Source of the DNA: Zygnema cylindricum
Lineage: Eukaryota; Streptophyta; Zygnematophyceae; Zygnematales; Zygnemataceae
Assembly (NCBI GenBank): GCA_037447655.1
Contig: JBBHKE010002557.1
Location: forward strand, 1-64,000
Direction: 5' to 3'
Length of the DNA: 64,000 nucleotides
The notes under the pieces are model-generated. The model was not told the DNA's origin, searched no databases, and was given only the letters and a program-made list of their open reading frames with translations. The position numbers were made by a program, and so were the translations under genes. This document shows, piece after piece, positions 4,118 through 61,745 of this stretch; position 1 is the stretch's first letter, and every line of letters begins with the position of its first letter.

Positions 4118-4174
4118 ACGTGAGATAATCGACGAAGATAAAATGGTACATCGCACGTAAAGTTCATAATGCGA

Positions 4175-9893: not shown

Positions 9894-10356
9894 ACATCCT
9901 TCTAATTCTTGAAGGATGCGCTGAAGAAGCACCCCGTGCTCGGATGCTTGATCACCGGAAACCTTTCCTCTTATACACCGACTGGAGCAGGTTTGGATTA
10001 GGGGCAATTTTGACTAAGATTTATGACGCCGGGGCGGAGTGTGGTGGCTTACGCCAATAGGAGTAATAATAGAGCCGAGGGAAATTACAGCAGTTACCGT
10101 GGAGAGCTTCTCGCGGCGGTTTGGGCCATTCAGCACTTCTGGCCCTATCTATACGGGACACAGTTTACCCTCATTACCAATCACCAACCTCTCAAATGGA
10201 TCATGGAAAATAGTAAGTTAACTAGCAAAATCGCCAGATGGGTTTTCATCTTGCAGGAATACGATTTCACTATTGTCCACCAGGCAAGAGAAATCCACGA
10301 GAACGCTGATAGACTGAGCAAAAATCCCGACCCCTCAACTTTGGACTCTACCTGAG
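9894..10356 (+). pseudogene. Gypsy RNase H domain (decayed)
   Basis: This degrades the RNA strand of the cDNA hybrid. Visible are LLYTDWSRFGLGAI (about 9970-10010, first catalytic Asp in TDWS), then YRGELLAAVWAIQHFWPYLYG (about 10098-10160, catalytic Glu) and FTLITNHQPLKWI (about 10163-10203, with Asp to Asn at the usual TDH position). The frame is open from 10023 to 10355 but shifts before that. Loss of the TDH aspartate and the frameshift suggest no activity. Confidence 0.88.
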
Positions 10357-11880
10357 CTCGGCATGATGAGGACCCTGAAGTTAGCTTGGCAATCATCCGA
10401 GCCTCCTCCGCATTAATCTGGCTTCCCCCATCTGGGTGGGAATTGTGAACTTTTGCTTCAAACTTAGAGAGGGAGGCACCAATAGGGGCCTAAAGGAAGG
10501 ATATTAGGATTTATCCGGATTCTCTCCAATCTATCCAGCGCGGTTCACCTCTTCCCCAGTTGTCTGGAGTTAAATTGGCCCGTGTTCAAGACCGGATGGC
10601 TGCCTATGATTGGGACCGGGGTATTCTCCTCCGAAAATCGGCGGATGGGACGAGGAAAGTGGTTCCCCCACCCGCAGATCGAGAAACTCTAATTACTCGC
10701 ATTCATCAATAATGTAGGCATTTTAGACTGAAAAGGACCACTTCCATGATCACGGGATCATATTGGTGGACCGGATTGCGGACCTAAATCAACCGAGTTG
10801 TACAGACCTGCTCTTCCTACGATCGTGTTAAAGCCACTTTTGATAAAAAGGGTGGGACAGAGCTTCATTCTCTTCCCATCCAAGGGATGCTTTACCAATG
10901 GTCTATGGACCTTTAAGAGCCTCTCGCGACTAGTAGACGGTGAAATTGTTTCGTCCTGGTCATGAAAAAACATTTTCGAAATGGATATAGTCGGTGGTTT
11001 TGCCCCGGAAAGAGTCTAAGGCGATTGAAGATGCCTTTTTGCAGAGGGTGTTGTCGCAATTTGGGGCGCCAATAGAGGTTTTACCTGACCAAGGCTCTGA
11101 ATTTGCCAGAGAATTTTCAAACCTTTTGGAATTGTGCCTCATCGACCATTGGTTGACCAGTCGGGACCATCCTCAAGCCGACGGTTTGGCCGAAAGGTGC
11201 ATACAGACAGTGAAGCGGTCACTACGAAAGTATGTAGTGGAACAAGATTTGGGAGAGTGGGAAAGAAGAGTGCGTTCGATTGCCATGGGATACAAGTTCT
11301 TCTGGCATGTTTCCCTCCACTCCTAGATCCCTTACTTAATTTTATTTGGATGACATCCCATCCTGCGCGACGTTGCTTCGGCCTAAGTAGTGGTTTTCCC
11401 CGAAATAGACAACCAAATGACAGTGGAGAGACTTATTGCCGATAGAGCCAAAGTCTTCCACTGAGAGATCCCTCTCGCTATCGGAAAATCACAGGCGGCT
11501 CAACACCAAGATCAGTTGTGGTATTCTCAACGCCGAAGTGGGAATTTGGTACCATGACAACGGCGATTTATGCTTGGGGATTTTGTGTATAGAATGCAAC
11601 AGAAAAAAGACACATTCGATATTTCTATCGGGCGCGTAATTCTTAAAGTTGTATATGTTTTTAACAAATGGGTTCTTACCCTGGAGGAGAAGGATGGCCG
11701 AAAAATTAAAGACAACCAAATCAATATAGCCCCTTTTCATCTTTGGGGATTGGAAGATGAACCCACATTCCACCTCACTTACTTTACCGACCCACCATCT
11801 TGTTCCTCAGCCTGCACTCTGTCACCCCAGCCGGCTGATGTCTTGGTCTGCGACCAATTGAGCCAATGTTGGCATCCATC
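10357..11880 (+). pseudogene. Gypsy integrase and C-terminal tail (decayed)
   Basis: Integrase joins the cDNA ends to target DNA. An HHCC-like segment lies around 10700-10830. The core has WSMDL (about 10900-10915), then VLPDQGSEFAREF (about 11076-11115, second Asp) and HPQADGLAERCIQTVKRSL (about 11168-11224, catalytic Glu). The tail includes LGDFVYRMQQKKDTFDISIG (about 11571-11630). The same tail is found on the minus strand at 33220-33365 and 63310-64000. Multiple stops and frame changes are present. Confidence 0.87.
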
Positions 11881-11954
11881 ATGACTCCCCTCGTCTTGGG
11901 AGTCACACCCCCACCACTTGGTCACATGGTTCTGCTGGAACTGCGAGTTGGATG

Positions 11955-12290
11955 TGTAAATCCTTCATTTATATATCTTAGTCTCGATTGACTAAGAGGG
12001 AGGGAGAAATTGGGAACTCACCCTCTTTACCGGCACTCCCTCCTTTTTCCGGCCAGATGGGAAAGGAAGGGGGAAGAAGTATCTTTTCCACCTTCCCATG
12101 CATTAATTTTCATTTCTTGTCCCTATTTTCTCCTCCGCCTTTCATGCATGTCCACAGAAGGGATAGGGGGCAAAAATGGGCATTCTCACCATCACGAGAA
12201 TCATCCGCATTTAGGGTTATTTGCGAGAATCTGGTGCACACTATTTCGGGCTGCAAGACTTATTCTTATGTTCCCCAGGCATGCTCGACA
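11955..12290 (+). mobile_element. Gypsy M-family 3' LTR
   Basis: It starts about TGTAAATCC (11955) and ends GGCATGCTCGACA (12290). It contains GACTAAGAGGGAGGGAG and an AAATTGGGA block that are shared with 63008-63303, with the 3' block at 30610-30920 and, more weakly, with 2100-2313. It closes the gypsy element that carries the DNMT remnant. The start is less certain than the end. Confidence 0.75.
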
Positions 12291-44688: not shown

Positions 44689-46405
44689 TTATCCTCTTAG
44701 ACCTGGAGATCCTCATAGATTTGATCCTTATAGATTTGATCCTAATAGATTTGATTTCATTTTCACAAATGATAATTTTTTTTTAATATACATGAAAGCT
44801 TAAATCCGTTAAACAAAATCAATTTCCGCTTCTAATTTTTGGATGACTAGGATGAAAATGGACGTCACTTAATCGAATTTAGATTTAAATTTTGATTTAG
44901 AGGAAAATGGGTAAACTTGAACAAGAAAATTTTGAAATTTGATAAATTTGGAGGAATTTAGAAAACATTGGATGGATATCTGAATTAATTAGAAACATTA
45001 TGAAAACATTTAACGACATTAAACCGAACTAGATGAAAAATGTGGAAAATGAGTGATGAAATGTTAAAATTTAATAAATTGAAATAAAATATTCAGAACT
45101 GTGTGAAAATTTCGAAGAAATTGAAATCATTAGGATAAAATTTGATAAAACTGAATTGAATGTAGTTGCAAGTAAGGGAAAGTGGATTAAATTGAAAAAA
45201 ATAATGTTGAAATTTGATGAAATGGAGAAGTTGGAGAATTTCTGATGAAAAATTGAAAGAAATTAAAATCATCAGGATATGATTTTACTGTTCTGGATTA
45301 AATTTAGATGGAATTAGAAGAATGGGTGAAACTGAATTTAGTGAAACATTGGATGGAAATGTGAATGAAATTGAGAGCAAACGGATAAAATTTGATGAAA
45401 TTAAATTTGTGGTCGAATACATTTGTATTATCTTTTTAAATCCAACCACTAATTTTCTTTCAAGTTTTGTTTTTTATTTTTTCTGGTTTTGATTTGCACA
45501 TATTTATTATTTCTTTTGACGAAATTGAGCAATTACATTTCCCACTGCAATTCCCATCGTCCATCGCTATTAAAGGATTTATTAGTGTTGATAAAATTTA
45601 CAATGTATAATACTAATTTAAGATAAGAAGACAGGATGGGAAATCGACCAGCAATGGACAGCAGAGGTCGCAAACGGTCAACCGAAATCGTAATCGACCG
45701 TTAACCGACAGCCCGCGTCGGATCCGGAATGGATTTGGTTGCCATATTTGGGGGGTCGGGAGGATTCGGGCGGGTGATTCACCAAAAAAAATATAAAATA
45801 GGTTATGGTCGGGTAAGCAAAAAATGAAAAAAAAATTGAAGGTTTTGTACCGTCGATACTATCCAACATTATTGTACTTTGTACTCTTGGTATCGTGGAA
45901 GGTATAAGGGAGATGTACCACTAATTTTGTACTTATTCAGGTACGGGCGGGTACAGGTAGTCGCGAGAAATCGAGATTCAGTTAACTTTTATTTTCGTAA
46001 ACTCGTTTCGAGAAACGGTTAACAATTTTGGTGCATGATATAACCCGGTCAGGCATCGAGTATTCAGATTTTGAAAAAAAAAAAAGGGTCAGTTTCAGTA
46101 ATCTAAAATGTTGACTTTTCCGACCTCTAGTGGACGGCCGTGGAAAATCGAGGCGATTCTGGTCGGTGCAAACTGCGGAGCGAAAACTACACCACGTATC
46201 GCTATTAGTGTCAACGTTTTTTTTGACACTTAAAACATTATTTTCCCGTACATGCTTATTGGATTATGGATCTGACGGTTGCGATTGAAAGCCAAAATTC
46301 TCACCTTCCGATTGGGTGTCTCCATGTGAAAATCAGACAAGTGTGTATGGAATGTCGTGCATGTGTCAACTAACGTGAAGATGCATGCAATATCATCAGC
46401 TAAAC
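44689..46405. other. Intergenic, AT-rich, no gene seen
   Basis: The part 44760-45430 is a monotonous purine-rich run of degenerate AAATTTGATGAAATTGGA-like words. The part 45430-46400 has no open frame over 65 codons and no recognised repeat. A polyadenylation region for the fucosyltransferase gene would be here, but no signal is decisive. Confidence 0.7.
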
Positions 46406-47110
46406 AACCGATGGATGGCCACTAGGCCCCACGGCCTATTTATATTCCTTGCAGGAGTTATCCTATTGAAGACAATATGAATTTAGACTTAAAGAGAATA
46501 AATCAAAATAGAAACAACCGAGACGGAAAAACAAAAACTGAAAATGACAATATGCAAAACACCTATTAGGTTTGAGATAACCAAACTCAAAAGATGCACA
46601 TAAGCCAACTAGAAATAAATACACAATCACAAGAAATAAAAACAACAAAATGATATTCCCAACATGCAACTTCCACACTAATTAAAGTTCAGCCACAGTC
46701 GGGAAAGAAGTTTGTGTTATGAGGACGCGATCGAAATCCACTCAAACGGACGAAAAGAGTTGAAGGGAAACCGTGCGGGTCTTGGCCGTAGCCGTATAGA
46801 TTAATATGTAAGGCTTTACAAGAGATTGATAATGTAATACAAACTAGACGCTTCACGCTAAGGCAGAAAGTCACCTCTAAGCTATCCGGACAATTTTACA
46901 AATAAAAAGATGGCAGCAAAAAATCTTCAATACTCAAAATAATAATTCATGCACTTGAAAATTGTCTGCAGGAAATAATCTAAAATCTACTAAGTACCAC
47001 CGTCTACGCCTAGCGAAAACGAACCAATAGGATTGCAGCGTGCTATGTAAATATTGGGTCTAGTTTGGATTCAACCAATAGGCAGCCGGAATCCCATGCC
47101 TTACGTTGAC
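46406..47110 (-). mobile_element. LTR (3') of the DNMT-encoding element 'G3'
   Basis: It is a direct repeat of 52081-52748 (about 90% alike by eye): CCGATGGATGGCCAYTAGGCCC, AGTTATC-TATTGAAGACAAT, AAAGAGAATAAATCAAAATAG and GGATTGCAGCGTGCTATGTAAA blocks. It directly abuts the end of the DNMT domain on the minus strand. The exact limits are uncertain by several bases because no clean target duplication is seen. Confidence 0.75.
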
Positions 47111-48166
47111 AGTGGCGACCAGCTGCAAAGCCAAGACCTAAAACAAAAGACAAAGACTGAGGGTCCATGACACGACCTAATAAACTGCATCTTTGACGTT
47201 CTGTAATACCAGGAGCGGCTGTAGTGTCAGGAATGAAATGTAGTGCCAAGAATGAAATGCAGTGCCAGGAATGAAATGCAGAAGGTGTTCTCGCTCCGTA
47301 GAGGTAGGCTCTTCGAGCTCACCGGTATAAATGTTTCGGAGTATGCCAGGACCGTCATTAGAGAATGCATGCGAATGTGGGTAAGAAACTAAGTTAGGAA
47401 GAACCTTTAAAGGTTGACCCGGGACGTTGATATTGAAATTAGGGGGACAGTCCTTTTGAATGCAAGGTTGCACCTTATGGAAAGGAAGAAGGGCAGCCTG
47501 AATAACTGTAGGAGGAGGACGAAGTGACACGTTAGCCCCGCGGAGTCAACCAATATCGATAAGGTTCGTCCATTTGGAGCGAACCCGATGTGCTAATCAA
47601 CCATGGCGAGCCGCATCAATAATAAGGGGCGGACCAATTAATTGTGCGATCCGTTGATAATCAGCCAAGACCGTGGGTCTTGAATCTTTATAAGCTGCGA
47701 CATTTTCCAAGATATACCCCATAGGATGCTCTAAAGTTTGTAGAAAGTGGAGGATGCGGACCAACTCAAAAAATAATTTGGTACGGGGATCTGCTAATCG
47801 GAGGCCTTTCTAGGCCCAAGACATTCCCTGACACTCCCATCCACCAAAAACTAGATTAACCGGCCCAATCTCCACTACTTGATGGTTGCCCACAATCCGG
47901 ATGTCTTCTAGGAGGGCAGTATGCATATGCTCATATGCATATTTTGGTAACAAATGCGGGTATTGCGAATGCAACAAATTACAATGTACTTGTGCTTTCC
48001 GTGCTAAAGGATCAATCCCGACAGCATAATAGAATCAGATTAATAATCCATTTCGCAGACAAGAAAAAAGGGAAGTGCCAATTATAGCGAAGAGGCCCAA
48101 AATCACCAATCCATTCGGATGAGGTCTTCATTGGACCGGATTCCAATTAATAGGAAGAAACCCAAA
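47043..48166 (-). pseudogene. C5-cytosine DNA methyltransferase in LTR element (catalytic Cys kept)
   Basis: Predicted to methylate cytosine C5 in DNA with S-adenosylmethionine. On the minus strand motif I reads GLVILGLFAIIGTSLFS (about 48110), then FYYAVGIDPLARKAQVH (motif II), VNLVFGGWECQGMSWA (motif IV; catalytic Cys codon 47833-47831, Pro to Glu before it), LADPRTKLFFELVRIL, GYILENVA (motif VI), IIDAARHG and LAHRV (motif VIII), TSTERE (47300 region) and a motif-X-like LLGRVMDPQSLSFVLGLGF. From 48589 to 47177 the protein is in one frame, interrupted by five nonsense codons (48130, 48037, 47812, 47599, 47548) with no frameshift; one frameshift follows near 47200. Motif order is canonical, so it is not a permuted DRM; no BAH or chromodomain is attached, unlike MET1 and CMT. 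The C-terminus runs into the LTR (stop at 47043). Confidence 0.85.
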
Positions 48167-48361
48167 CGAGTCCGTAGGAATTAGGATTGGAGGAGAGACT
48201 AGATAAAGTGGAATTGACAAGGTTTGGTTATAGATGCGATTAAATTCCCTCGTATCTATAAAAAATCTTAGGTCACTGAAAATTTCGGGCAAGTAAGAAC
48301 TATCGGGCATAATTTCTTCTGTTGACAATGAATGAAGTATTTTGACCCCCACAGAATTCCT

Positions 48362-49008
48362 TCAAAATGCAGGTATGAAGGTGGCCAAATGTGCCATAAA
48401 AGGCATGGGTTTCTTAGCGAAAATTAACGGAATGCAGATTTTGCGTTCTAGGAAGCTAGTGGGCCTATAAGAAAATGTCTGATCATGCATGTCAACTCCA
48501 CCCCCTACACGAAATAGAACATCCTGTCCCACTAGGCATTCATAGTCACTATATTTAGTGACTAGAGCGTGAACTAAGATCTCTGCCAAGTTCGTGTCCG
48601 TTCCATTTTGGAACTGGAAGACGAGCGGTTCCTTAGTGATTCCTAAGACAGGCTCGTTGTACCCACTGATGTTAACAAGCGAGTCGTAGTGGGCTGAAGC
48701 TTGTCCGGAGTTAGACCAAGCTTGAGTGCAAAGCGAGAGCCCAATATCACCGGATTTGCATCCGTATCCATGAGGGGCAAAGAAGGGGCTATACCATTGT
48801 TCAACAATGAACCCTTCCCGTTATCCAAAAAACTTACGTGAGGATCGAGGGAATTTTGCTCCTCCACAGAAATAGGCTGAATAGAAACAAGATTTGTGTG
48901 CAGCTGCAGTGCTTGTAAAGCGACAAATGCAGCTGAGCTATTGGAGGTAGGAAAGAGTTTTGGAGTGTCAGAAATCATAGTGGATAGAATGCACAAGTGT
49001 TCTTTCAC
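48362..49008 (-). pseudogene. Retroviral-type aspartic protease of G3
   Basis: It cleaves the polyprotein. On the minus strand SLPLMDTDANPVILGSRFAL holds the active-site triplet as DTD (family DTG/DSG; third position Gly to Asp), followed by LKLGLTPDKLQ. In the next frame come ILVHALVTKYSDYECLVGQD and VLFRVGGGVD, the LLG-type C-terminal strand of the fold. A frameshift near 48640 separates the halves. The second half is in the same frame as the DNMT, supporting a protease-DNMT polyprotein. Confidence 0.75.
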
Positions 49009-49463
49009 GCGATGTGCTTCAGTATTGTTTGATCCACTATTGTGAGAGCTTCAGCCCCGATGGCTAAAGCGATTTCGGGCATGGGAGGAGAATGTTCTTT
49101 AGTAAATGACAACGGAATACGCGTGTTAGGAGTTTTACCGTCACGGCTGTGATTGGTCGAACCTTTATCGAACGTAGCCTCTCGTTGTTGGACAGTGGAA
49201 TCTCGTAAGATTCGACCTGCCAACGTGGGCATGTGTACAACGGTGCGAGCCATGCCTGTAAATTGTGGCTTCATTTGAGCCATGAAGGCTCCGAACTGCT
49301 CTTTAATCATGACCGCTGTTTGCTCTTGCATTTCCAAACGTTCTCTATCTCTTCGAGATACCTTAGGTGGAGTGGTGTTTTTTTCAAGTTCTTTAACCGG
49401 TTGAACTAGTCTTGCGGATAGAGCGGGAATGCCACCACTCTTAATTTGGTTCTGATAAGAAAA
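49009..49463 (-). pseudogene. G3 spacer between nucleocapsid and protease
   Basis: The frame 49337-49005 (MEMQEQTAVMIKEQFGAFMA onward) is in frame with the nucleocapsid part upstream, with one stop between. It is Gln/Lys/Thr-rich with no motif known to me; linker of the Gag-Pol polyprotein. Confidence 0.55.
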
Positions 49464-50407
49464 CTATGGGTTCTTTATATGACAACGTTGGACATAATGT
49501 CCTGTTTGCTTGCAATGTGTACAGGAAGTAGTTGGAAGCAGTTTTGTCTGGACACATTCGGGCATCATGCCTTGTTTTCCCACATCGAAAACATAATCTA
49601 TTTCTAGAGCAACTACTGGGGTTCCCATGGCCGGGACCTTAGGAGGCCAGTTGTTAGGACGAGGATCGTTCCATGGTGGAACAATTAGTTCTTTCAATAC
49701 CGCTTTAGGACGGTCATGGGCTTCCGACCAACAATTTTGCATTTCATGTTCCACAACATGCTGGGCAGCTTGGTCGAAAGTGAACTTCAAGCCGTAGGTT
49801 TGAGTTAGTTGACTCTACATAAATTTCTTAGACTGACTCAGAAACTGTCGTACAAATTTTTGGACAGCTTCAGCATCCGACATCAAGTCCGGCAATGCTT
49901 CACGAAGAGTTTCCATACGTGCACGCATGGCAGGGGCGGTATCTTGGATTTCCGTTCAAAGTTCATCAACTCGCGAACTTGGTCAGGGTTTTGCATACGG
50001 TATTCCGCTTGCAACATTTCAAACATGACTGAGAGCGGATCTAGTATACGGATCGTCATCGCTGGTCGTGTTGGGATTCCAACACGAACGGTTATAGCAA
50101 ACTGTTGGGGTATTTCCGTAACTGCTGCTCTAATAACACCCCCTTTGAGATCAAGGACTTCCGTGATTGCCGGTTGATAAAGAATTTCAGGTTGTCCTAT
50201 AATAGGAGGACTCCCAACTAAAGCTGGAGAAAACTTTGTCATCGCAAGTACGGAATCATACTTGCGGGAATAAAGAGTAAGGGCCGAACGGCGAAGGTAA
50301 TGGCCTAAATGAGATAAAGCAACCCGTAGGTCAAACCGATTTTGGTACCGGAATGCAAGCTCGCGCATTTCGATATTGAATAACATACGGAAATGAGATA
50401 GGGTCAT
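49464..50407 (-). pseudogene. G3 gag with zinc knuckle
   Basis: Capsid and nucleocapsid. The first part (50407-49883) has MTLSHFRMLFNIEMRELAFR and a Pro/Ile-rich middle, then MFEMLQAEYRMQNPDQVREL. After a frameshift near 49880 the second part (49790-49464) reads FTFDQAAQHVVEHEMQN and ends with CTHCKQTGHYVQRC, a perfect CX2CX4HX4C RNA-binding knuckle (about 49520-49479). The frame is broken only a few times. It is upstream of protease and DNMT on the same strand, as expected for a Gag-Pol order. Confidence 0.8.
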
Positions 50408-50927
50408 TTTGTCTTTTATTCATGAAAAACACAAATGAAGCCGACCCCCTCCCTCGGATGTGGAAGCCATTGCCATTAATGGAATGAGTGGGGCTAATAA
50501 TGAATTTGTAAGTTGCGGAAACCATAAAGATAATGAATTGGAATCTGACCCGTCCAGGGAATTGTGGTCATATTTTTTCTCGAAAAGTGTGGAAGAGACT
50601 GATGATAAAGAAGATACTGAGGTGAGAGACGATCGGACTGAAGGGGAAATTTGACCCGAGATATCATGGGAAGAATGGTCCAAAAGACTAGGTAAGTCTG
50701 ATGGTCCTGATTCTGTGGGCCTAAAAGAGGCCGACGACGTGTAGTTTCGAAAAGATAATCGAGATTATCCCAATCGGTGGGCTTAAAAAATGATAAAACC
50801 AAATGATGACCAGATAGCAAAATCGATCTATACGAGATGCTTCAAATGCCAGGCCACACCACTCTCTTGTTCAATTAGCCTATCAATCTCTAACAGGGCC
50901 TCGATGGCCAGATCTATCAAGAAGCCA

Positions 50928-51027
50928 AATTACCAAAACCTGCTACCTTGCAAACAAGGGGGCAAGGCCGAAAGGCCAAATTACGAAAACCTGCTACCTT
51001 GCAAACAAGGGGGCAAGGCCGAAAGGC
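50928..51027. repeat. 50-bp tandem duplication with hairpin potential
   Basis: Two units starting AATTACCAAAACC and AATTACGAAAACC, otherwise identical. Each contains CCTTGCAAACAAGG and GGCCGAAAGGCC, both able to form stem-loops, and CCTTGC can also pair with GCAAGG. Confidence 0.9.
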
Positions 51028-51654
51028 CAGATCTAGGAAGGAAAATAACTTACTACCCAAGCACTCACAAGTGCAAATCTACAGCGACACAATCCAAAAA
51101 AAAACTAATTAATGCCACCAACGGCAAGATCTAAGGAAGAAATCTCACACAAAACAAAGCAAACTTAGCCAAGGCCACTCAGGGCTAGATAGCAAACATA
51201 GAAAGCTGGAAAAATGTAATGCTCAATATGAGTGCATTCGAGCAAATCCACGCCAATCTCATTCCCTCTAACGATCAACCAACTATCCTAACACGCTTTT
51301 GCACCCGCTAGGCATTGTGATACTTACATAACACTTTTAACAATCTGGTGATTATCAAAAGTGAATAGAGTCGATCGTTACAACAAAAGTTTTGCAAAAC
51401 TCCAAATCCAATATGCTTCCCTTTTTTTACTCTTCGTGAAATAAGGAAGTCGACCGGTCACCTCGAATATAAAATTGGGTACGGGCGAGAAACGGAGCGC
51501 ACACTAACACGAGTCAAGTTATGGTGGAAAATAGTACACCAAAACAATTGAATATCTAAGAATTTGGCAACAATCTTAAGAAATGTTGGAAATTGATTGG
51601 ACAAGTGTGAAATTGAAAGAAGTGTTTGGAAATATGAAAAAATATGTTACAATG

Positions 51655-51810
51655 TATACTAAATGTGCACAAATTGGAAGAAATGTGGAGCAATCTGCAC
51701 AAAATGTGCAGAAATTGCAAAAATTGCAGAAATTATGCAGAAATGTGCCAAAATGTGCAGAAATTGCAAGAAATGTGCAGATATTGCAAAAAATGTGCAA
51801 AAATTTTCCA
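51655..51810 (+). repeat. Degenerate GTGCAGAAATTG tandem repeat
   Basis: More than ten imperfect units of 9-12 bp built from (G/T)GCA(G/A)AAATT/ATG. It keeps frames open on both strands. Confidence 0.85.
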
Positions 51811-52080
51811 ATGTTCTATAATGTTTGCAAATATGACCAAATTTCCAAGAATGTATGATCAAAGTGACAGAATGTTAATAGCTAAGGATAAAAATGTGAA
51901 GATATGTTTCAACAATTGCATAAATTGCGACAAATGAGCGTCAATGTTGACGAATGTCGAGAAAATATGAATATAATATATATATATATATATTTTTTTT
52001 TATATAACCGAATCTGAAAAAAACAAAATGAATTGAAAATATCAATTTTGAATGAGAGACAATTTTCAAGTGCAAGAATA

Positions 52081-52748
52081 CTAAACCGATGGATGGCCAT
52101 TAGGCCCCACGGTCTATTTATATTCCTTGCAGGAGTTATCATATTGAAGACAATCTTAATTCAGACTTAAAGAGAATAAATCAAAATAGAAACAACCGAG
52201 ACAGAAAACAAAAATTGAAAATGACAATATGCAAAACACCTAATAGGTTTGAGAAAACCAAACTCAAAAGATGCGCATAAGCCAAATAGAAATAAATACA
52301 CAATCACAAGAAATAAAAACAACAAAATGATATTCCCAACATGCAACTTCCACACTAATTAAAGTTCAGCCACAGTCGGGAAAGAAGTTTGTGTTATGAG
52401 GACTCGATCGAAATCCACTGAAACGGAAGAAAATAGTTGAAGGGAAACCGTGCAGGTCTTGGCCGAAGCCGTATAGATTAATATTTAAGGCTTTAGAAGA
52501 GATTGATAATGTAATAAAAACAAGACGCTTCACGCTAAGGCAGAAAATCGCCTCTAAGGTGTTCGGACAATTTTACAAATAAAAAGATGGCTGCGGAAAA
52601 TCTTCAATGCAAGAAATAATTTAAAATCTACTGAGTACCAGCGTTTACGCTTAACGAAACAAACGAATAGGATTGCAGCGTGCTATGTAAATATTGTGTC
52701 TAGTTTGCATTCAGCTAATAGGCGGCCAGAATCCCATGCCCTGCGTTA
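52081..52748 (-). mobile_element. LTR (5') of element G3
   Basis: Partner of 46406-47110. It lacks a 40-bp piece that the other LTR has near 46935-46972. The inner edge is ACTAAACCGATGG on the plus strand. Confidence 0.75.
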
Positions 52749-53020
52749 TAGAAGCTATAACCTATAAATAAAAACCCTTCCTATCTACATGTGAATGCGT
52801 GAACCTCCAAATGGTTCACGACTTAAATTTTTCCCATCGCGTCCCATTGTCAGAACTGACAGTCGGCTTGTTTGTACGTCGCATCAACGGTCCGGATACG
52901 ACATTTCGAACTTGGGATGCTTTTGCGTCGATGGCCGAGATGATCTTTCGTGCGAAAAAATGAAATTCCTCCTCAACGGAAATTTCGGGAGATACGGGTA
53001 CGGTAATATTATAGGTACGG
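52749..53020. other. Short intergenic stretch with TSD of the chromovirus
   Basis: No gene is seen. It has several inverted words (TATAGAAGCTATA at 52748-52760, GTCAGAACTGAC at 52850-52861). The last five bases TACGG (53016-53020) are the target duplication of the next element. Confidence 0.7.
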
Positions 53021-53984
53021 TGTAATAGGATTTCTAACCTCTCAGAAAATAGCATTACTACATCACATTTCAACCACACATTCCAACACATTAGAAAATT
53101 ACACATTCTCATTGGAAAGCACTCACATAAAGAAATAAACTTTAAATTAGAATAAGCTTCTGTCCACATAACATTAGCTTGGTCTCTTGCCCTCGTGGCT
53201 CAACCCTTGTTTTAAAGTGTTTTCCTCTACTCTCCACTCTTAATAATTCTATCTCTTAACTACTAAAATACTACTTAGTTTGTAAGAGATTTCAATGCCA
53301 ATTCTCCAATTTGGTTTTAATCGCTCAAGACCATGATCAGTTGGAATTTCCACAAACTTTTCCCAAAGGAAAAGATGTCTACTCTCCTCCTACACTTCAC
53401 TATTTATCCATTGTCGCCTTGGACTTGCGAGGCCAACGTCAACGCTCAGTTGAATTGGCTTTTACGTGGGCCAATCATTGATCAGCAAGGACTCGGACTG
53501 ACCAATTAAAAAGCGTGCGAAATCTCCCACTAACTACGTAGCATTTACTTACCAATCAAACACTACATTTTTATACGTAGCATTTACGTGCAAAAGTGCA
53601 CGCAAATTGAAACGCGACTTCGCACGATCGTGCGTTTCGAATTTAACTTGCGAAACTACCTATGAAACTTACAAATTTGAATTATAATGTTTCGTACTAA
53701 AAATCGTACGAATTGAACCATAAGAGGTACCAAACCACTATTAGTACTTTATATAGACGTACGCGTTAAATTCCGCGACTACTTTGACCCTTAACCCGTT
53801 TCAATGTTACCCACCTATTATTTTGACCCCTAGCTGTCACCTAAATATACCCATCGCTATATCTTTTGAAATATGACTCTAAATCGCGCGATTCTTTCGT
53901 GGACGTCCACCAAATTTAGTACTCTATATTCATAACACCTAAATACCCCATTACAAACAAGTTAAATCTGCTGTTATTGTTACA

Positions 53985-54003
53985 TCATCCCCTCCTTATT
54001 TTT
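53985..54003 (-). other. G2 polypurine tract
   Basis: The minus strand reads AAAAATAAGGAGGGGATGA directly before the 3' LTR. It is the usual primer for plus-strand DNA synthesis. Confidence 0.8.
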
Positions 54004-54032
54004 AACTTACCTCAGTTAAAACTCTTTGATTC

Positions 54033-54700
54033 TCAAGACAGGAATTCTATATTATCATCCCTCCAATACCTTTGCAAAAACTCAGAATTTTTATCTTCTA
54101 AAGTTAACTCATCTTCTGGCTTTCCTAGATAATGCACTTGCCAGAATATAGTATTGCCGACCTCAAACCGTTGACCAACCCAATTTATTACCCATCTGTG
54201 AACCTCAAATTCTATAATTATTGAGGGATCCAAATTCGAATTCTCCTTCAGTTGGTCGAAGATTTGCTGGTTTTAACTGGCTGATATGTTTCACTGGATG
54301 AATTTTTGTTGAAGGCGGAAAGTCCAATTTGGCAGCAACTAATGATATCATCTCGATTACTGTAAATGGTCCGATGTACTTAGGAGCAAATTTCCCAGTA
54401 GGATCCCCTTGTCCCTCGATCTTGCACCAGTAATGAGTTGTTGAAAGCCAAACCTTCTCACATGTGCTTTCCATCCAATCACCCCCTTTGCGGTTAGCAT
54501 TTAGTTTTTGCCTTCTTTGTGCCTCCACTAATGCATCCCAGACTATTTTCCAAATAGTTTGAATGTATTCCCAAAATTCCGTTCTAGAACCCCTATTCTC
54601 TTGAGTGACCCCTATTATTAAGTCTAATGCTTCTTTCGGTTGGTACCCGTATTCAACTTCAGAAGGTGAGAATCCTGTACTAGCATGTTAACATGTATTG
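54033..54700 (-). pseudogene. G2 integrase C-terminus and chromodomain
   Basis: The frame 54528-54205 holds the integrase GPY/F-like region (FAPKYIGPFTVIEMI, then KIHPVKHISQLKPA). The last frame (54233-54033) reads VHRWVINWVGQRFEVGNTIF and WQVHYLGKPEDELTLEDKNS, matching the chromodomain pattern (ILxxR...YLVKWxGxPxxxxTWE), with W and Y of the aromatic cage roughly placed. Chromodomains of chromoviruses steer integration to heterochromatin. A frameshift near 54205 separates the two. Confidence 0.8.
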
Positions 54701-55299
54701 TATGCAAATTCCATTAATGGCAGTTTAGATTCCCATGTGTTATGAACTCCACTGCAAACAGTCCTAAGCATTTCTTCCAGTGTAGGGTTCATCCTTTCTG
54801 TCTGTCCATTTGTCTGAGGATGATAAGAGGTACTCATTTTTAATTCAGTGCCTAAATTTTGATGCAATTCTTTCCAAATTGCAGATGTAAATTTAGAATC
54901 CCTATCACTGACTATAGACAGAGGAACTCCACGATGTCTGACCACGTTGTCAAAATATAACTTTGCAATATCTACAACTGAATGAGTAGTTTTGCAATGA
55001 ATAAAGATTGCAATTTTACTGAACCTATCGACTACGACCATGATAGTTTCATTTTTTCTGGATGTAACTGGTAACCTGACAATAAAATCCAAACTGACAG
55101 ATTCCCATGGTCTTTCGAGGATATCTAAAGGTTTTCAGAGACCTCTAGGTTTCTGGTTACTAGGTTTACTCTGTTGGCAAAGGACACAACTTTCCACGTG
55201 TTTCGACACCTCCATTGCCATCCGTGGCCAAAACAATCTACTCTGCAACCGACTAAGAGTTTTATCTAGACCTAGATATCGTAAATGCTCATGGGCTTC
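54688..55299 (-). pseudogene. G2 integrase core
   Basis: The HHCC zinc-binding region (EAHEHLRYLGLD, CVLCQQSK) lies near 55300-55170. The core reads SLDFIVRLPVTSRKNETIMV (first Asp), VSDRDSKFTSAIWKELHQNL (second Asp) and YHPQTNGQTERMNPTLEEML (catalytic Glu), then WESKLPLMEFAYNTC. The DDE triad is complete; stops at 55133 and 54689 break the frame. Confidence 0.92.
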
Positions 55300-56226
55300 C
55301 TACAAAAGTTGTTTTTTTAGGTCTCCCATTTCATGAATGCATAACCTATCCCCTGTTCGCAAATATAGTAAACCATCATCTATTCTAAAGTTTTTGACAC
55401 GCCTCTCATTCAATGGGTCAAATTTCCCTCCCGAAATATTTTTGCAAATCACAGCAAAATAAGGATCTTTATCATAACCATTCCTAACAGCATCTAACCG
55501 AACCATCACACTTATTTCAAAACATCTACTTAAAGGATCTGGGACTACATTTGTCTTTCCAGGAATATGTTTGACATTAAAATTGAAATATGCTAATTTC
55601 TGCATCCACTTAACTTGTCTGCCAGTCATAATCTGTGCATCACTGAATCTCTGTAGATAGGAGAGTGCCTTATTATTAGAGTAAACTGTAAAATCTTTAT
55701 TATGCAAATAACAATGCCATTTCACCAATGCATGAATTGTTGCAAGTAATTCATTTTCCTGTGTTGGAATTTTTTTTTCAGCATCATTAAATTTCCTGGA
55801 CTCAAAAGCAATAGGATGAAAATGTTTGCCGACTTTTTGACTTATGAGTGCACCTAGACCTTTATCAGATGCATCAGTAATGATCTGAATTTCAAATTCC
55901 CCAGGAGGATCAGGATACAACAGTGTAGGAACAGAGGTCAACTTCCCTTTTAGTTCCTTGAAAGCTCTCTTTTGATCGTCTCCCCACACAAACGTCTCTT
56001 TCTCCCGAAGTAAATCTGTCAATGGTGCGGCGATCATACTGAAGTTCTTGATAAATTTAATGTAATAAGTAGCCAATCCCAAAAATGATCTAACTTCTGT
56101 GACATTAGTGGGCTGCTTCCAATTTTGTATTGCAGTAATTTTGGAAGGATATGTTTTAACACCTTCCCTATTAACTATATGTCCCAAAAATAATTGTTCA
56201 CTTTTAAAAAAGCTCGATTTTGACAA
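55300..56226 (-). CDS. G2 RT connection and RNase H, open frame of 308 codons
   Basis: The minus strand reads FLGHIVNREGVKTYPSKITA and VRSFLGLATYYIKFIKNFSM (RT thumb/connection), then the RNase H domain: IITDASDKGLGALISQ (Asp), ENELLATIHALVKWHCYLHN (Glu), TVYSNNKALSYLQ (Asp replaced by Asn at the TDH position), and HIPGKTNVVPDPLSR (last Asp). After it comes a linker toward integrase (DPYFAVICKNI, DGLLYLRTGDRLCI). Part of a former polyprotein rather than an independent gene. Confidence 0.92.
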   Translation of the reverse strand: MSKSSFFKSEQLFLGHIVNREGVKTYPSKITAIQNWKQPTNVTEVRSFLGLATYYIKFIKNFSMIAAPLTDLLREKETFVWGDDQKRAFKELKGKLTSVPTLLYPDPPGEFEIQIITDASDKGLGALISQKVGKHFHPIAFESRKFNDAEKKIPTQENELLATIHALVKWHCYLHNKDFTVYSNNKALSYLQRFSDAQIMTGRQVKWMQKLAYFNFNVKHIPGKTNVVPDPLSRCFEISVMVRLDAVRNGYDKDPYFAVICKNISGGKFDPLNERRVKNFRIDDGLLYLRTGDRLCIHEMGDLKKQLL

Positions 56227-56690
56227 TTTTCCATATAACCTTCTTTCCCTTAACCTTTCCTTTACCTTCCCTAGATGAATTACATGTTGTTGTTAGATTC
56301 GCTGAAAATTAAAATATCATCTGTAAACACCTGAACAAACTCATCTATTTAATCTGAAAATGTTTGGTTCATTAATCTTTGGTAAGTAGGCGGTGCATTC
56401 GTTAAGCCAAATGGCATCGCTATCCATTCAAAATGACCCACCCTAGTCTTGAAAGCAGTTTTATCAACATCTTAAGTTCTAATTGGCACTTGATTAAAGC
56501 CACTACGCATATCAATGAAAGAAAATAATTTAGCTCCTTTCAAACGATCTATCCAATTAGAAATTAAAGGTAACGGATACTTATCCTTCACTGTAATCTT
56601 GTTCAGACTACGATAGTTGACACACATCCTCAACGTTACGTCCTTCTTTTTGAAGAAAAGAACAGGTGCTCCGTACAGTGACATAATGGG
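56227..56690 (-). pseudogene. G2 reverse transcriptase core
   Basis: The minus strand reads [57 protein letters not shown] then a stop, [37 protein letters not shown], another stop, and VFTDDILIFSES with both catalytic Asp residues (near 56330-56300). A frameshift and further stops lie between 56300 and 56230. Otherwise a typical gypsy RT. Confidence 0.92.
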
Positions 56691-57134
56691 TTTAATATGT
56701 CTTTACTCCAGAAGCTGCTTGGTCTGTTTCTTTAACTCATCATGCTCAAAGAAGCTATGCTTATAAATTCCTGTGATAGGAGGATTACATCCACGTTCAA
56801 GGTTAATAACATGTTCCACATCTCGGGAAGGTGGCCTCCCCTAGGGTAAGTCACTTGGGAAAACATCTCTAAATTCAAAAATCAAATCTTTAACATCAAC
56901 ATCAGATGTATTAATGTCAGTTACAAAATCATATTTTTGTTTTTCAAGAGTTTTAGTGGTGTCTGATTTAGGAATGACATCAATGTTAGTGTTTTCTCCC
57001 CCCCCTTCATCAGTAACTGCCTCAGTTACTAATAATAAGAAAGCATGATTTGTGGTATCTTTTATATGCTATTTAAATTGTTTAGCGAAAATCAAACCTT
57101 CCACTCCCAACTTGGTTATGTTATTTATATGATT
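56691..57134 (-). pseudogene. G2 protease-RT linker
   Basis: The minus strand contains worn HEELKKQTKQLLE and NPPITGIYKHSFFEHDE-like pieces that precede RT. No intact frame is present. Confidence 0.6.
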
Positions 57135-57671
57135 CTAATGCAACTTCTTCGAAGGTAATGCTTGCAAAACCTTCCAACAGTTTTCAGACTTCACTCTCAA
57201 GGTGTTAGTTTCCCAATTAATTTGAGGGTTATGTTCAGTTGACCAAGGCTTTCCCAGTATTAGCTCATCACTACCCAAATTCATTATTTCACACATAACT
57301 TTCATTTTATGATTCTGGATATCAACTTCAATTATGTCAGTTTGTAAATCTATTGTGGACTTATTACGATTTGCCACTTGAACATGTAAAGGTTTTTCCC
57401 TTATGACTGTAGGAATTTTATTTTCCTCAACAAACTTATGTGATCTGAATGGTTTTCCTTCCACTAAAGACTCAAATCTGATCAAACTGTGTCTAGTGTC
57501 ATCGTTACTCAACTGTCTTAACATAGGTCTTTTGTTAAGAGTTTCATCAGAAGGATTGTTCAAACTATGGAGTGTAGTTAACATCATAATAAATTCAGCT
57601 ATCGTAGCCTTTCCATTTATTAGCATGCCCTCCAGAGTTAACTCTTTCACCTTTAAATCTGGTCGACTCAA
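57135..57671 (-). pseudogene. G2 protease region, active site disrupted
   Basis: The frame of 178 codons reads LTLEGMLINGKATIAEFIMM, LTTLHSLNNPSDE, where the family has (V/A)LIDSGATHSFI-like sequence: the DSGA segment is replaced, apparently by small indels. The C-terminal strand is kept (DIIEVDIQNHKMKVMCEIMN, SDELILGKPWSTEHNPQINW). It should not be proteolytic. Confidence 0.8.
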
Positions 57672-57685
57672 CTAAGGACTTTCAA

Positions 57686-58254
57686 CTAGTCTTTTCCGTT
57701 TCCCACCTCCTGGGCTTCCTGTTTATCTAGGTATAATGCAATATCTTCCTGAACACCTTCATTGACATCAACTGTTTTAAGAGATCCCATATCTGTACAG
57801 TTCTTAGAGTAATGATCTGGACCTCCGCATTTAAAACAAATGACTTTCTTCTTTGGTTTGGTGCATTCTCTGTTGAAATGTCCCTCCTCTCCACAGTTAT
57901 AACTGTAAAGTTCTTTAGTTATGCACACTCATATGCCCTATGACCTCTTTTCTGATAAATAGTGCATGTGGGAATGGAAAAATTAGGTTTCTGAGCATTA
58001 ATGTTCGGTTTAGGACTCTTAATGTAGCCCCCTCTATTTTGAAAAATATTTCCTACATTAACACTCTGTCCACCCCTATGATTTCCCCTGAAGATATTCT
58101 GCCTATTAACCAGACCTGCATTCAGACCTTCTTCCTCAAATTCCTTCTCACCCCACTCTGATACTTCATTGAAATTTCCCCTGAGTGATCGAGTTTCACG
58201 TTTATACCCCAACCGATCCTCTAATTCCAATGACTTATCTTGTAATTCCTTCAA
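57686..58254 (-). pseudogene. G2 nucleocapsid with zinc knuckles
   Basis: The frame 58254-57919 ends CTIYQKRGHRAYEC (knuckle with the second Cys changed to Tyr). The next frame (57928-57686) has YNCGEEGHFNREC (first Cys lost) and CFKCGGPDHYSKNC, a complete CX2CX4HX4C. RNA-binding part of gag, with one frameshift. Confidence 0.88.
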
Positions 58255-58286
58255 ATTAATAAATTTTTGATGTTTAAGTTCTGATT

Positions 58287-59066
58287 TCAGTATAAGATTT
58301 CGAATGTCAAGAAATACAACCTAGCCAATTCATCAGTCAAACCTATGACATGAATGCTGGATGAGTCAAATTCCACAATATAATCTTTCACAGATCCAGT
58401 TTGCTTACAGTTCAACCACATTTCTTCCATTCTGGATTTATAAGTGACAGACAAGAAACGCGATTTGATCGCGGTTTTAAATGTTTTCGAATGAGCATTA
58501 TCAAGAATCAAATTAGACTTTTTTTGAGTGTAATACCAAATTTGAGCAACACCTTTCAGACAGCTTACAGCAAAAGAAGTGTAATCATTATGATCACAGT
58601 TTCTAGATTCCAAATAATACTCCATTTGAAAAATCCAAGCATCTAACTCATCAATCTTCTTACCATCAAATGATGGTGCTTCACTGATAGACAATTTCAA
58701 ATCCTTTATCTTCTTAGGTCTATCGCGATTATCTTGCCTAAAACTGCCATTTCTCTTACTACTCTCACCCTTTTGATCATTAACGTCATTTCTTGTGTGA
58801 ATTAAAATAATTAGCTCATCCAATTTTTGATTTGAAACATTTACATTTTCTTTAACATCCTTCAATTCGCTTTTCAACTCACAAATTGTTTTATCCACAA
58901 CAAAAACATGATTATTTAATCTTTTGACCAATTTCACACTACGTTTCTTGAAAACAGTTAAGGCATTCTCCATTTCACGTTTCCATGCCGAATTTGCCAT
59001 TATCAAAAAAAATGGAATCGAGTAAAAGAAAAATAGAATATAATTTCCCAAAGAAATTTGCTGCAA
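58287..59066 (-). CDS. G2 gag capsid, open frame
   Basis: Likely start is the Met of MANSAWKREMENALTVFKKR (about 59000), since the upstream MQQISLG part is hydrophobic and lies in leader. It contains a coiled-coil-like Lys/Glu stretch, PSFDGKKIDELDAWIFQMEY (retrotransposon gag start pattern FDG...W), LESRNCDHNDYTSFAVSCLK, GVAQIWYYTQKK and MEEMWLNCKQTGSVKDYIVE. It ends at 58287; the continuing DIRNLILKSELKHQKF part leads with a frame change into the nucleocapsid. Confidence 0.9.
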   Translation of the reverse strand: MQQISLGNYILFFFYSIPFFLIMANSAWKREMENALTVFKKRSVKLVKRLNNHVFVVDKTICELKSELKDVKENVNVSNQKLDELIILIHTRNDVNDQKGESSKRNGSFRQDNRDRPKKIKDLKLSISEAPSFDGKKIDELDAWIFQMEYYLESRNCDHNDYTSFAVSCLKGVAQIWYYTQKKSNLILDNAHSKTFKTAIKSRFLSVTYKSRMEEMWLNCKQTGSVKDYIVEFDSSSIHVIGLTDELARLYFLTFEILY

Positions 59067-59719
59067 GTTTAAAGTCCTCTGATTGCTCCAATCCTAGACT
59101 TCTTCTCCTTCACAAATCCTTTGAAAAAGATCAAAATCTGAGAAATCAATAAAATATTGAAAGTAAGTTAGTGCAAAATCAATTCTTCAATTTCCTAAGC
59201 ATTGATGCAAAAAGGTAAAAATTTCCCCATAAATTTTGCAACAGCAAAAATGAAAGCTCTTAAAGGTAACAATTTAGGGTGCGAAAAGGTTTAAGTCATT
59301 TCTGGACTCCTTTGCTCTTGAAAAAGTAAAGTGCTCCACTTTCTTTATCCACCATTAGCAAATTTCCAATTTCCCACGACATTTGGATCTTTTTGTTCTC
59401 TAATCTTCACATCCTCACCCTTCATGGCTTGAAGTTCTCCCTCTACATATGAATCATTGCTAGGAGAAGGCAAGTTTGTTCAGCCTCTAGGTAATTGGAG
59501 TGAGTTTCAGCGGTGGCTACACTGCCCACCCCGCCTTACTCCTTAGGACCTGAGCACGCCCAACATCAAACCAGAGGCCGTTGGCAGTGTGATCACTCAG
59601 TTTCCCTCCAATCCCCTACCACTTCAGATTGTGGTACTACGGACACACGTTAGAGCACCCTCACCGGTCACGGCAGTCGATACTCGAGTGAGCAAACTTC
59701 TCTTTGGTTTCTAACCAAA
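59067..59719 (-). other. G2 leader between primer site and gag
   Basis: Non-coding leader, about 650 bp. No motif is seen other than the primer site at its outer end. Confidence 0.75.
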
Positions 59720-59731
59720 GCTCCGATACCA
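59720..59731 (-). other. G2 primer-binding site (tRNA-Met 3' end)
   Basis: The minus strand reads TGGTATCGGAGC two bases inside the LTR. It differs by one base from TGGTATCAGAGC, the complement of the initiator tRNA-Met 3' end, the usual plant site. It contrasts with the internal-tRNA site of the copia families here. Confidence 0.88.
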
Positions 59732-59733
59732 TA

Positions 59734-60704
59734 TGTAATAGGATTTCTAAAATCTCAGAAAATCCCATTACTACATCACATTTCAATCACACATTCCACA
59801 CATTGGAAAATTACACATTCTCATTGGAAAGCACTCACATAAAGAAATAAACTTTAAATTAGAATAAGCTTCTGTCCACATAACATTAGCTTGGTCTCTT
59901 ACCCTCGTGGCTCAACCCTTCTTTTAAAGTGTTTTCCTTTACTCTCCACTCTTAATAATTCTATCTCTTAAGTACTAAAACACTACTTAGTTTGTAAGAG
60001 ATTTCAATGCCAAAATGCCAATTCTTTAATTTGGTTTTAATCGCTCAGGACCAAGATCAGTTGGAATTTCCACAAACTTTTCCCGAAGGAAAAGATGTCT
60101 ACTCTCCTCCTACACTTCACTATTTATCCATTGTCGCCTTGGACTCGCCAGGCCAAAGTGAACGCTCCGTTGAACAAGCTTTCATTAGGGCGAATCATTG
60201 ATCTGCAAGGACTCGGACTGGCCAATGCAAAAGCGTGCAAAATCTCCCACTAACTACTTAGCATTTACTAATCAATCAAATACTACATTTTTCTACGTAG
60301 CATTTACGTGCAAAAGTGCACGCAAATCGAAACGCGACTTCGCACGATCGTGCGTCGCGAATTTAACTTGCGAAACTACATACGAAACTTACAAATTTGA
60401 ATTAAGACGTTTAGTACTAAAAGTCGTACGAAACGAACCATAATAGGTACCAAACCACTATTAATACTTTATATAGACGTACGCGTTAAATTCCGCGGCT
60501 ACTTTGACCCTTAACCCGTTTCAATGTTACCCACCTATTATTTTGACCCCTAGTTGTCACTTTAATTCACCCATCGCTATATCTTTTGAAATAGGACTCA
60601 AAATCGCGCGATTCTTTCGCAGACGTCCACCAAATTTAGTACTCTATATTCATAACACCTAAATACCCCTTTACAAATAAGTTTGATCTGCTCTTACTGT
60701 TACA
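59734..60704 (-). mobile_element. G2 5' LTR
   Basis: Partner of 53021-53984. The open frames 60007-60201 and 60198-60443 are LTR sequence that recurs at 53291-53500 and 53481-53720 with frame breaks. Confidence 0.95.
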
Positions 60705-60709
60705 TACGG

Positions 60710-61745
60710 TAACATTGTAAGTACGGACGCCAACGGTAAACTTCGTCGTCGGCTGAAATTACGGGAAAAATATATATGTACGATTGACGCGAACGCGACA
60801 TTACGCCGTCGACGGAAATTTTTCAGCAGAAAAATAAATATGTACGTTCGACGCGTACTACGATGTTAAAATGTATGGTCGACGCGAACGCAAAATGTAA
60901 GTATGTATGGTCTTGCAAAACCCAAATAACACACAAACACAAATTAGTGTGGCAGCCGCCGATCCTAATACGTAAATATAACAAGAAAAATGTCCGACAA
61001 GATACGGCATGACTGGAAAAATATGTTTCAGCGGCAATTTTTTTTTTAACCCTAATAGGGATAAACAGTGCAGGATGCAACATTGGCGGGAAGAGGATAC
61101 CTAATAGAAGGCGAGACACCTACCCAGCGAGATTTATGGTCAGGATTTGCGGTCCGGATTTGTACCATTTTGACCGTGAGTTTTGCCCTGATTTCCAGCC
61201 GTAATTTCGCCTATCATTTTCGAACGTGATTTTTCGGTGGTGATTTCCGACAATGATGATGACCGACAATTACGGCGAAGTGAAATCGGTTTCACACCAA
61301 AGGCACTTTCCCATGAAACCGAAACTTAGTCTACTACTTTCAAAGCGTTCCGATGTAACGCAATGAAATCGTTACTTTAAATCGTGACGGATATAGACGT
61401 GGGTGTAATTTGTGACGGTTGTAGACGACTATAAAACTTGCTATAATTGATGACGTTTACAAAATAGCGACGGTTGTAGGTGTGTACTTTCGTGTGTAGA
61501 TGTTTAGGGTTTGTGACATTTTGAGTTCAAGTTCACTATGATAGCGTCAACGTCACTAATTCCAAATCTTTCCGCCATGGTTTCCCGATTTTGTTATTTC
61601 GTCCTTTCTCACTCTACTTGCCATCAAAATACGCTCAAATACAGTTAAAAGTAATCTTTTTTATAGATCTTTGAATTAGTATTGTAATTGATTTTTTTCA
61701 TTATAAGGATTATGTGATAGACGCAGTAGTGGGAGAAGGAGAAAG
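60710..61745. other. Intergenic, no gene seen
   Basis: No open frame with recognisable motif. It contains several GACGGTTGTAGACG-like words (61390-61480) resembling words in the tandem units at 39.3-40 kb. An open minus frame 60823-61119 is not supported by anything else. Confidence 0.6.

What the first reader, a model, noticed from the sequence alone, without database searches (positions are those of the whole stretch)
47043..48166. DNA C5-methyltransferase encoded by an LTR retrotransposon
A canonical-order DNMT domain (motifs I, II, IV with catalytic Cys, VI ENV, VIII, X) lies between a retroviral-type protease and an LTR, on the same strand as gag and in the same frame as the protease C-terminal part. 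Only nonsense codons interrupt about 390 codons, so it was under coding constraint until recently. Retrotransposon DNMTs are known from dinoflagellates and a charophyte alga; this copy shows the same idea, possibly in another lineage. A retroelement could use such an enzyme to methylate its own cDNA or to hide among methylated host DNA; that role is inference. The domain is neither permuted like DRM nor fused to BAH/chromo modules like MET1/CMT, and it replaces the Pro of PCQ by Glu.
Basis: partly seen in the sequence, partly recalled or inferred. Interest (0 to 1): 0.95.

Follow-up and report, generated by a model that had tools for sequence, protein, structure and literature searches.

The report
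Broken retrotransposon carrying DNA methylase
A decayed jumping gene in a large, unnamed green-lineage genome carries its own DNA-methylating enzyme, a kind of element published from one streptophyte alga and, in other forms, from dinoflagellates; intact relatives in this genome also carry a histone-reading finger, and relatives turn up in several other green algae.

Summary
Window 61014-46353 (minus) is a decayed, internally deleted Ty3/gypsy-type element whose pol ORF carried a non-permuted DNMT3-class methylase between protease and reverse transcriptase. Its DNMT frame is 66% identical to an intact 2,395-residue ORF elsewhere in the genome (CCHC-PR-DNMT-RT-RNaseH-integrase-PHD). RT to PHD and part of the 3' repeat are missing; a 4-bp duplication TTCC flanks it, and a gypsy element is nested in its 5' repeat. 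The 47107 junction is in none of the 39 other copies scored, so it looks like one deletion. A second DNMT element lies at 926-12290. dN/dS is well below 1. ECQ instead of PCQ is shared by many relatives, not decay. Closest kin: KnitGypsy-Dnmt3 (Klebsormidium nitens). New within my literature searches: related elements in chlorophytes, Closterium and metagenomes fall into two clades by DNMT position (before RT or after RNaseH); 50 of 69 rows show a PHD finger, whose nearest solved relatives include H3K4me0 readers; one young copy combines DIRS-like split repeats with a 4-bp target duplication. Self-methylation is inferred. Host unnamed; Zygnema cf. cylindricum fits but is unproven.

The parts
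46353..61014 (-). Whole DNMT element A from left end (61014) to right end (46353), with a conventional gypsy element nested inside; about 6.97 kb without it
   Evidence: 4-bp target-site duplication TTCC at both ends; left end aligns with the A-repeat starts of C2577 and C1344, right end ..CACGACA as in C1344
52084..61014 (-). 5' A repeat (A1), split by the nested gypsy element: 61014-60706 and about 53020-52084; TATAAATAG 30 nt before its end
   Evidence: blastn 52910-52058 to C2577 26844-27743; upstream piece to C2577; repeat alignment
53021..60705 (-). Nested conventional gypsy element, no DNMT match: repeats 59734-60705 and 53021-53985 (92% identical), target duplication CCGTA, PBS-like TGGTATCGGAGC; gag 58290-59066, protease 57138-57671, RNaseH 55303-56226
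49023..50572 (-). gag remnant with CCHC-like motif, several frames
   Evidence: tblastn to L009 residues 112-634; weak CCHC hits
48655..49020 (-). Aspartic protease remnant
   Evidence: tblastn to L009 residues 636-757; Asp_protease_2 E=0.012, below cut-off
47103..48151 (-). DNMT3-class methylase domain, non-permuted; stops and one frameshift
   Evidence: tblastn to L009; relatives' motifs aligned; stops counted
47223..47281 (-). 19-bp tandem repeat (3.1 copies) at the frameshift
47103..47107 (-). Deletion junction: coding sequence runs straight into the 3' A repeat; RT, RNaseH, integrase, PHD and the start of A2 are missing
   Evidence: 39 of 39 other scored genome copies (of 612 candidates) stop matching at query position 1247 (window 47106) or earlier; intact order
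46406..47107 (-). 3' A repeat, first part missing (A2')
   Evidence: 702-nt alignment with 52084-52747
46353..46405 (-). Short B repeat and right end, ..CACATGCACGACA then TTCC
   Evidence: sequence
926..12290 (+). Second DNMT element (B), other subfamily: A-like 926-2098, B-like 2119-2313, DNMT 2584-3914, RT-RNaseH-INT 8799-11066, INT-PHD 10973-11956, B-type end at 12290; nested non-autonomous LTR element 3915-8802
   Evidence: tblastn 53-63% to L010/L011 in the DNMT pieces

Best explanation
Shown: the feature is a dead, internally deleted copy of a Ty3/gypsy-type retrotransposon that encodes a DNMT3-class cytosine-5 methylase inside its pol polyprotein, between protease and reverse transcriptase, with a PHD finger after the integrase in intact copies. 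Inferred: in live copies the polyprotein packages the methylase with the RT complex, it methylates the new double-stranded cDNA (and possibly DNA at the landing site), and the PHD finger on the integrase side steers insertion to H3K4-unmethylated chromatin, so that the new copy arrives already marked and in quiet chromatin, at lower cost to the host. The window copy lost RT to PHD by one deletion ending inside the 3' repeat, decayed, and was hit by another gypsy insertion; the order of these events is not fixed. The confidence given is for the identification; I put the self-methylation mechanism at about 0.45.
For: Homology and domain order; target duplications TTCC and TTGG; split repeats; DNMT3 class by sequence and fold (all 50 rows shown are DNMT3 structures; model pLDDT 70, pTM 0.76, parts of 183-255 under 50); dN/dS of the DNMT domain 0.116-0.405 in the 9 informative pairs of L008, L010, L011, L015 and L016 (the tenth, L015-L016, is identical), and saturated pS 0.75-0.84 with pN 0.11-0.15 among L009, L012, L014 and L033; PHD best PDB matches include PHF12, KDM5, BAZ2B, PHF21A, ATXR5 and UHRF1, several of which I recall as readers of unmodified H3K4. 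SymbioDIRS-Dnmt3 domains methylate CG de novo in yeast (PMC5890265, parts 1-4 of 7 read).
Against: No activity is shown for this subfamily; the KnitGypsy-Dnmt3 domain gave no methylation in yeast, which its authors call inconclusive. Many relatives, the window's subfamily included, have Glu where C5 methylases usually have Pro before the catalytic Cys. NCBIfam's dcm model scores 44 and 55 bits, below its cut-off of 100.65. CpG is not depleted in element A (observed/expected 0.84 against 0.82 for the window), so there is no mutational trace of heavy CG methylation.
Confidence: 0.8

Rival explanations
1. The gag-PR-DNMT element without RT is itself a mobile, non-autonomous family that supplies Gag and methylase and borrows RT and integrase.
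For: Both ends and the target duplication are intact around the deletion. ORFs ending after the DNMT exist: L014 (866 aa), P0024 and P0025 (PR-DNMT), Haematococcus P0021.
Against: The junction at 47107 is in none of the 39 other copies scored, of 612 candidates. The other ORFs may simply be followed by a further pol ORF, as in L013.
Confidence: 0.1
2. The domain is no longer a DNA methylase: the ECQ form binds nucleic acid or methylates RNA during replication.
For: ECQ in 10 of 16 PR-DNMT-RT rows, PCQ in 5, PYQ (catalytic Cys lost) in 1; KnitGypsy-Dnmt3 inactive in yeast.
Against: Catalytic Cys 114, Glu 156 of motif VI, and His 195, Arg 196 and Arg 198 are invariant in 9 of 9 rows of alignment A1; exceptions in the wider set are P0003 (Tyr for Cys) and P0015 (Tyr for His). 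Purifying selection.
Confidence: 0.25
3. A chance chimera: a host DNMT3 gene fragment fell into one LTR element.
For: None found.
Against: Many copies in this genome, same domain order in other algae, DNMT and RT trees that agree on the main split.
Confidence: 0.01

Closest known systems
KnitGypsy-Dnmt3 of Klebsormidium nitens (de Mendoza et al. 2018, PMC5890265)
   Same: Gypsy pol ORF with a non-permuted Dnmt3-class domain, repeats arranged as in DIRS, purifying selection; P0017 from K. nitens has DNMT before RT-RH-INT and falls in the same RT clade.
   Different: Separate deep branch (P0017 is 42% identical to L011); PHD is not mentioned in that paper's main text (0 occurrences), but P0017 is partial, so its absence there is not shown; ECQ in the window's subfamily, PCQ in P0017.
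SymbioDIRS-Dnmt3 (dinoflagellates, same paper)
   Same: Dnmt3-class domain in pol, split repeats A-coding-B-A-B.
   Different: Tyrosine recombinase, no DDE integrase; here rve and H2C2 integrase domains and 4-bp target duplications.
SymbioLINE-Dnmt (same paper)
   Same: Retroelement with a cytosine methylase.
   Different: LINE, orphan DNMT class, no terminal repeats; CG depletion reported there, none here.
Orchid Ty3/gypsy elements with AlkB m6A demethylase (PMC9289625, abstract and passages)
   Same: Ty3/gypsy element that took up a nucleic-acid modification enzyme.
   Different: RNA demethylase in an additional ORF, unrelated domain.
Chromoviruses (Ty3/gypsy with integrase chromodomain; recalled)
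   Same: A chromatin reader at the integrase C-terminus.
   Different: PHD finger instead of chromodomain.

Membership tests
KnitGypsy-Dnmt3-type elements | Ty3/gypsy pol order RT-RNaseH-DDE integrase | tested here: met
   Intact copies L009, L010, L011 in one ORF, L013 in two; the window copy itself has lost this part
KnitGypsy-Dnmt3-type elements | Non-permuted Dnmt3-class methylase inside the pol ORF | tested here: met
KnitGypsy-Dnmt3-type elements | DIRS-like split repeats (A-coding-B-A-B) | tested here: met
   Complete in C1344 (A 931 nt at 100%, B at 99.6%) and, with an extra B, in C1374; B-A-B end in C1407 and C1042 (B2 of C1042 cut by the fetch); C544 has A1 and B1 but no A2 found. No A2 found for C2577 within the stretch fetched. 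Window copy: A1, partial A2, short B2
KnitGypsy-Dnmt3-type elements | Purifying selection on the DNMT | tested here: met
KnitGypsy-Dnmt3-type elements | Methylase activity | not testable with these tools
   Not shown for KnitGypsy either
DIRS (tyrosine-recombinase) elements | Tyrosine recombinase (Phage_integrase) | tested here: not met
   Pfam scans of the intact ORFs at E up to 0.01 give rve and H2C2, no PF00589
DRM | Permuted motif order VI-X, I-V | tested here: not met
   Order I, IV, VI, VIII, X; DRM2 matches only part of the profile
MET1/CMT | BAH or chromo domain with the DNMT | tested here: not met
   No such domain in the ORFs scanned at E up to 0.01
Virus of a known group | Relatives in viral contigs | tested here: not met
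   IMG/VR scan: 32 pattern matches, 0 relatives by tblastn

The most novel reading that the evidence does not exclude
DNMT3-plus-PHD Ty3-type elements form an old, green-lineage-wide group (streptophyte and chlorophyte algae) whose split-repeat replication and paired 'writer' (DNMT3) and 'reader' (H3K4me0-type PHD) copy the logic of host DNMT3 with its ADD domain: the element writes its own methylation and lands in matching chromatin. The methylase was taken up once before, or passed between, the two green lineages, with one change of position, rather than only in the Klebsormidium lineage; chlorophytes reported to lack a host DNMT3 would carry one only in their elements.
Probability: 0.35. 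Interest if true: 0.8.

Novelty: new member of a known kind. Interest (0 to 1): 0.55.

Why it matters
It extends methylase-bearing retrotransposons from one published streptophyte alga to further green algae and to a genome with many copies, one of them very young (100% identical A repeats in C1344). That makes the open question of why a retroelement carries its own methylase testable in one host: compare methylation and landing sites of new DNMT-plus-PHD insertions with those of DNMT-less gypsy elements. If the host is Zygnema cf. cylindricum SAG 698-1a, the published 9-fold or greater PHD enlargement there may be element-encoded.

Tried and rejected
Taking the element as 46.4-52.7 kb: rejected, because the 5' repeat continues on the far side of a nested gypsy element to 61014. 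A first TTCC|TGTC candidate at 54040 lies next to that nested element's 3' repeat, inside the nested element, and was dropped. Reading the 3915-8802 repeats as a split-repeat element: rejected, it is an LTR element with an insert in its left LTR and an 890-nt interior. The idea that ECQ is decay: rejected. CpG depletion as a methylation trace: not found. Viral relatives: none. Host identity: not settled; the matK (PF01824) search did not complete. Host DNMT3 sequences could not be placed in the trees: the profile search returned element-type hits (down to E of about 1e-20) and then generic DNMTs (1e-9 and weaker), and it scored only the 7,997 candidates sharing most words. The RT and DNMT trees lack DNMT-less gypsy rows, so one capture or two cannot be told apart; both large trees used the quick method. 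Rows without RT, RNaseH or a long enough DNMT match were left out of those trees (57 of 69 kept); P0022 was left out. The C1374 flanks show no matching target duplication, so 2 of the 3 elements with both ends read have one.

Full report
Check of the observation. Against intact ORFs from the same genome the case is strong: 474 codons at 48679-47261 are 66% identical to L009, and 47243-47103 continue at 83%. The would-refute conditions are not met.

What the element is. A family search of the genome (352.8 Mb, unnamed) had 782 PF00145 candidates and scored 123; by my count of its rows 85 of 123 have no stop in the matched stretch. Neither DNMT of the window is among the 123. L009 gives CCHC-PR-DNMT-RT-RNaseH-integrase-PHD in one 2,395-residue ORF; L010 and L011 give DNMT-RT-RNaseH-integrase-PHD in one ORF; in L013 integrase and PHD follow in a second ORF. 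The window copy keeps gag, PR and DNMT and then runs into its 3' repeat. A DNA search with 47043-48352 scored 40 of 612 candidate copies: itself at 100%, the other 39 at 82-86% over their main stretch, none matching past query position 1247, window 47106. So the junction is private to this copy among those scored.

Borders. The right end is ..CACGACA followed by TTCC at 46353; the left end lies at 61014, preceded by TTCC, and aligns with the A-repeat starts of C2577 and C1344. Between them, inside the 5' repeat, sits a conventional gypsy element 53021-60705 with repeats of 92% identity and the duplication CCGTA. The two A copies of element A align over 702 nt with a 36-nt indel (blastn 87.9%).

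Repeat structure. In C1344, the copy with the most alike repeats of those read, the order is A1, coding, B1, A2, B2, with A copies 100% and B copies 99.6% identical, TG..CA ends, a 4-bp duplication TTGG, and a B1-GC-A2 junction in which right end and left end of the element lie two bases apart. C1374 shows the same with one extra B and no matching duplication; C1407 and C1042 show B-A-B at the 3' end; C544 shows A1 and B1 only; in C2577 no second A was found in the stretch fetched. This is the DIRS-type repeat order, with a DDE integrase. The legend of Fig. 4 in PMC5890265 says the same of KnitGypsy-Dnmt3. How such an element is copied is not known to me.

The methylase. A profile of nine element DNMTs matches 58 PDB sequences at E up to 1; the first 29 are DNMT3A, 3B or 3C (best 1.5e-22), then DRM2 over part of its length, then bacterial enzymes. 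A model (pLDDT 70, pTM 0.76) finds DNMT3 structures in all 50 rows shown. NCBIfam's general dcm model matches below its cut-off. Motifs I, IV, VI, VIII and X are in canonical order (motif names recalled). GW-E-CQ replaces GW-P-CQ in 10 of 16 PR-DNMT-RT rows (the printed L009 motif is a wrong spot, read instead).

Selection. DNMT dN/dS is 0.116-0.405 in the nine informative pairs of the L010/L011 subfamily (the near-identical pair L009-L013 gives 0.319); in the pair L010-L011, with both domains, it is 0.135 for DNMT and 0.090 for RT-RNaseH. The window copy against L033, L027 and L032 gives 0.24-0.27. Near relatives are mostly decayed: of 11 other copies examined, 1 (L033) had the DNMT query stretch in one frame without stops.

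Relatives elsewhere. Two searches of the protein collection returned 22 and 46 proteins and a profile search 92; searches scored only the candidates sharing most words, so the counts are lower bounds. Of 69 rows examined (65 proteins and 4 ORFs of this genome), 46 have DNMT after RT or RNaseH, 16 have DNMT before RT, 7 could not be assigned; a PHD was matched in 50, and 10 with integrase had no PHD match. The RT tree (57 rows) and the DNMT tree (62 rows) each part the two arrangements by one branch (SH-aLRT 100 and 97; quick method); in a careful DNMT tree of 29 rows the DNMT-before-RT rows are parted from the rest at 97/99, the rest including rows without RT in the ORF. Of the named rows placed, Klebsormidium and Closterium fall in the DNMT-before-RT group, Chromochloris and Haematococcus in the other. 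This genome has two lineages, and the window holds one copy of each (element A and element B).

PHD finger. The finger of L009 matches PHF12, KDM5, BAZ2B, PHF21A, ATXR5 and UHRF1 among the best PDB chains (90 sequences at E up to 0.01, 60 shown). From recall, several of these read unmodified H3K4, as the ADD domain of DNMT3 does; no binding was tested.

Literature. In the listings of searches I found PMC5890265 on DNMT-bearing retroelements and, on opening PMC12344493 (section 5 read; passages), one sentence on DNMT3 within retrotransposons citing it. I read parts 1-4 of 7 of PMC5890265. Of other listed papers that bear on DNMTs I opened PMC9861306 and PMC9122828 by passages, and did not open PMC9998398, PMC10538959 and PMC11244446. 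I found nothing on chlorophyte copies or on the PHD finger within what I saw; preprints and subscription papers are mostly not held. PMC9861306 (passages) cites a survey of 12 algal genomes with DNMT3/DRM only in a red alga and a charophyte.

Host. This is a lead, not a result.

Verdict. The window copy is a dead deletion derivative and an ordinary member of its family; the interest lies in the family: many copies, at least one young, a methylase and a PHD finger kept together, and a spread across green algae wider than in the papers I saw.

Noticed in passing
window 926-12290 (+): Second DNMT element of the L010/L011 subfamily with RT, integrase and PHD; its A- and B-like repeats sit just before the DNMT and gag is missing there, an arrangement I cannot explain.
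   Followed up: partly
window 3915-8802 (+): LTR element nested in element B, target duplication ATAGC, ends TGTTG..CAACA, interior only 890 nt with a purine tract: probably non-autonomous.
   Followed up: partly
window 28670-29993 (-): Solo-LTR-like copy of the same LTR (78% to 7474-8802).
   Followed up: no
window 63988-63292 (-) and 33376-33225 (-): Scraps of integrase-PHD ends of DNMT-type elements.
   Followed up: no
window 14301-16772 (-) and 25438-25956 (-): Copia RT and gag fragments.
   Followed up: no
window 43160-43951 (+): O-fucosyltransferase-like stretch (PF10250 E=1.2e-6, 28.8 bits, just below the cut-off of 31.5) with CpG o/e 1.70: the only host-gene candidate among the 10 ORFs scanned.
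   Followed up: no
P0120, Chlamydomonas eustigma: 464-residue protein with a DNMT-like stretch and a C-terminal part that looks like the integrase end of such elements (by eye), probably an annotated element fragment.
   Followed up: no
L038 (C2577:36277-41246): Long tandem repeats follow the coding part of a near relative of element A; its 3' repeat was not found up to 41,500.
   Followed up: no
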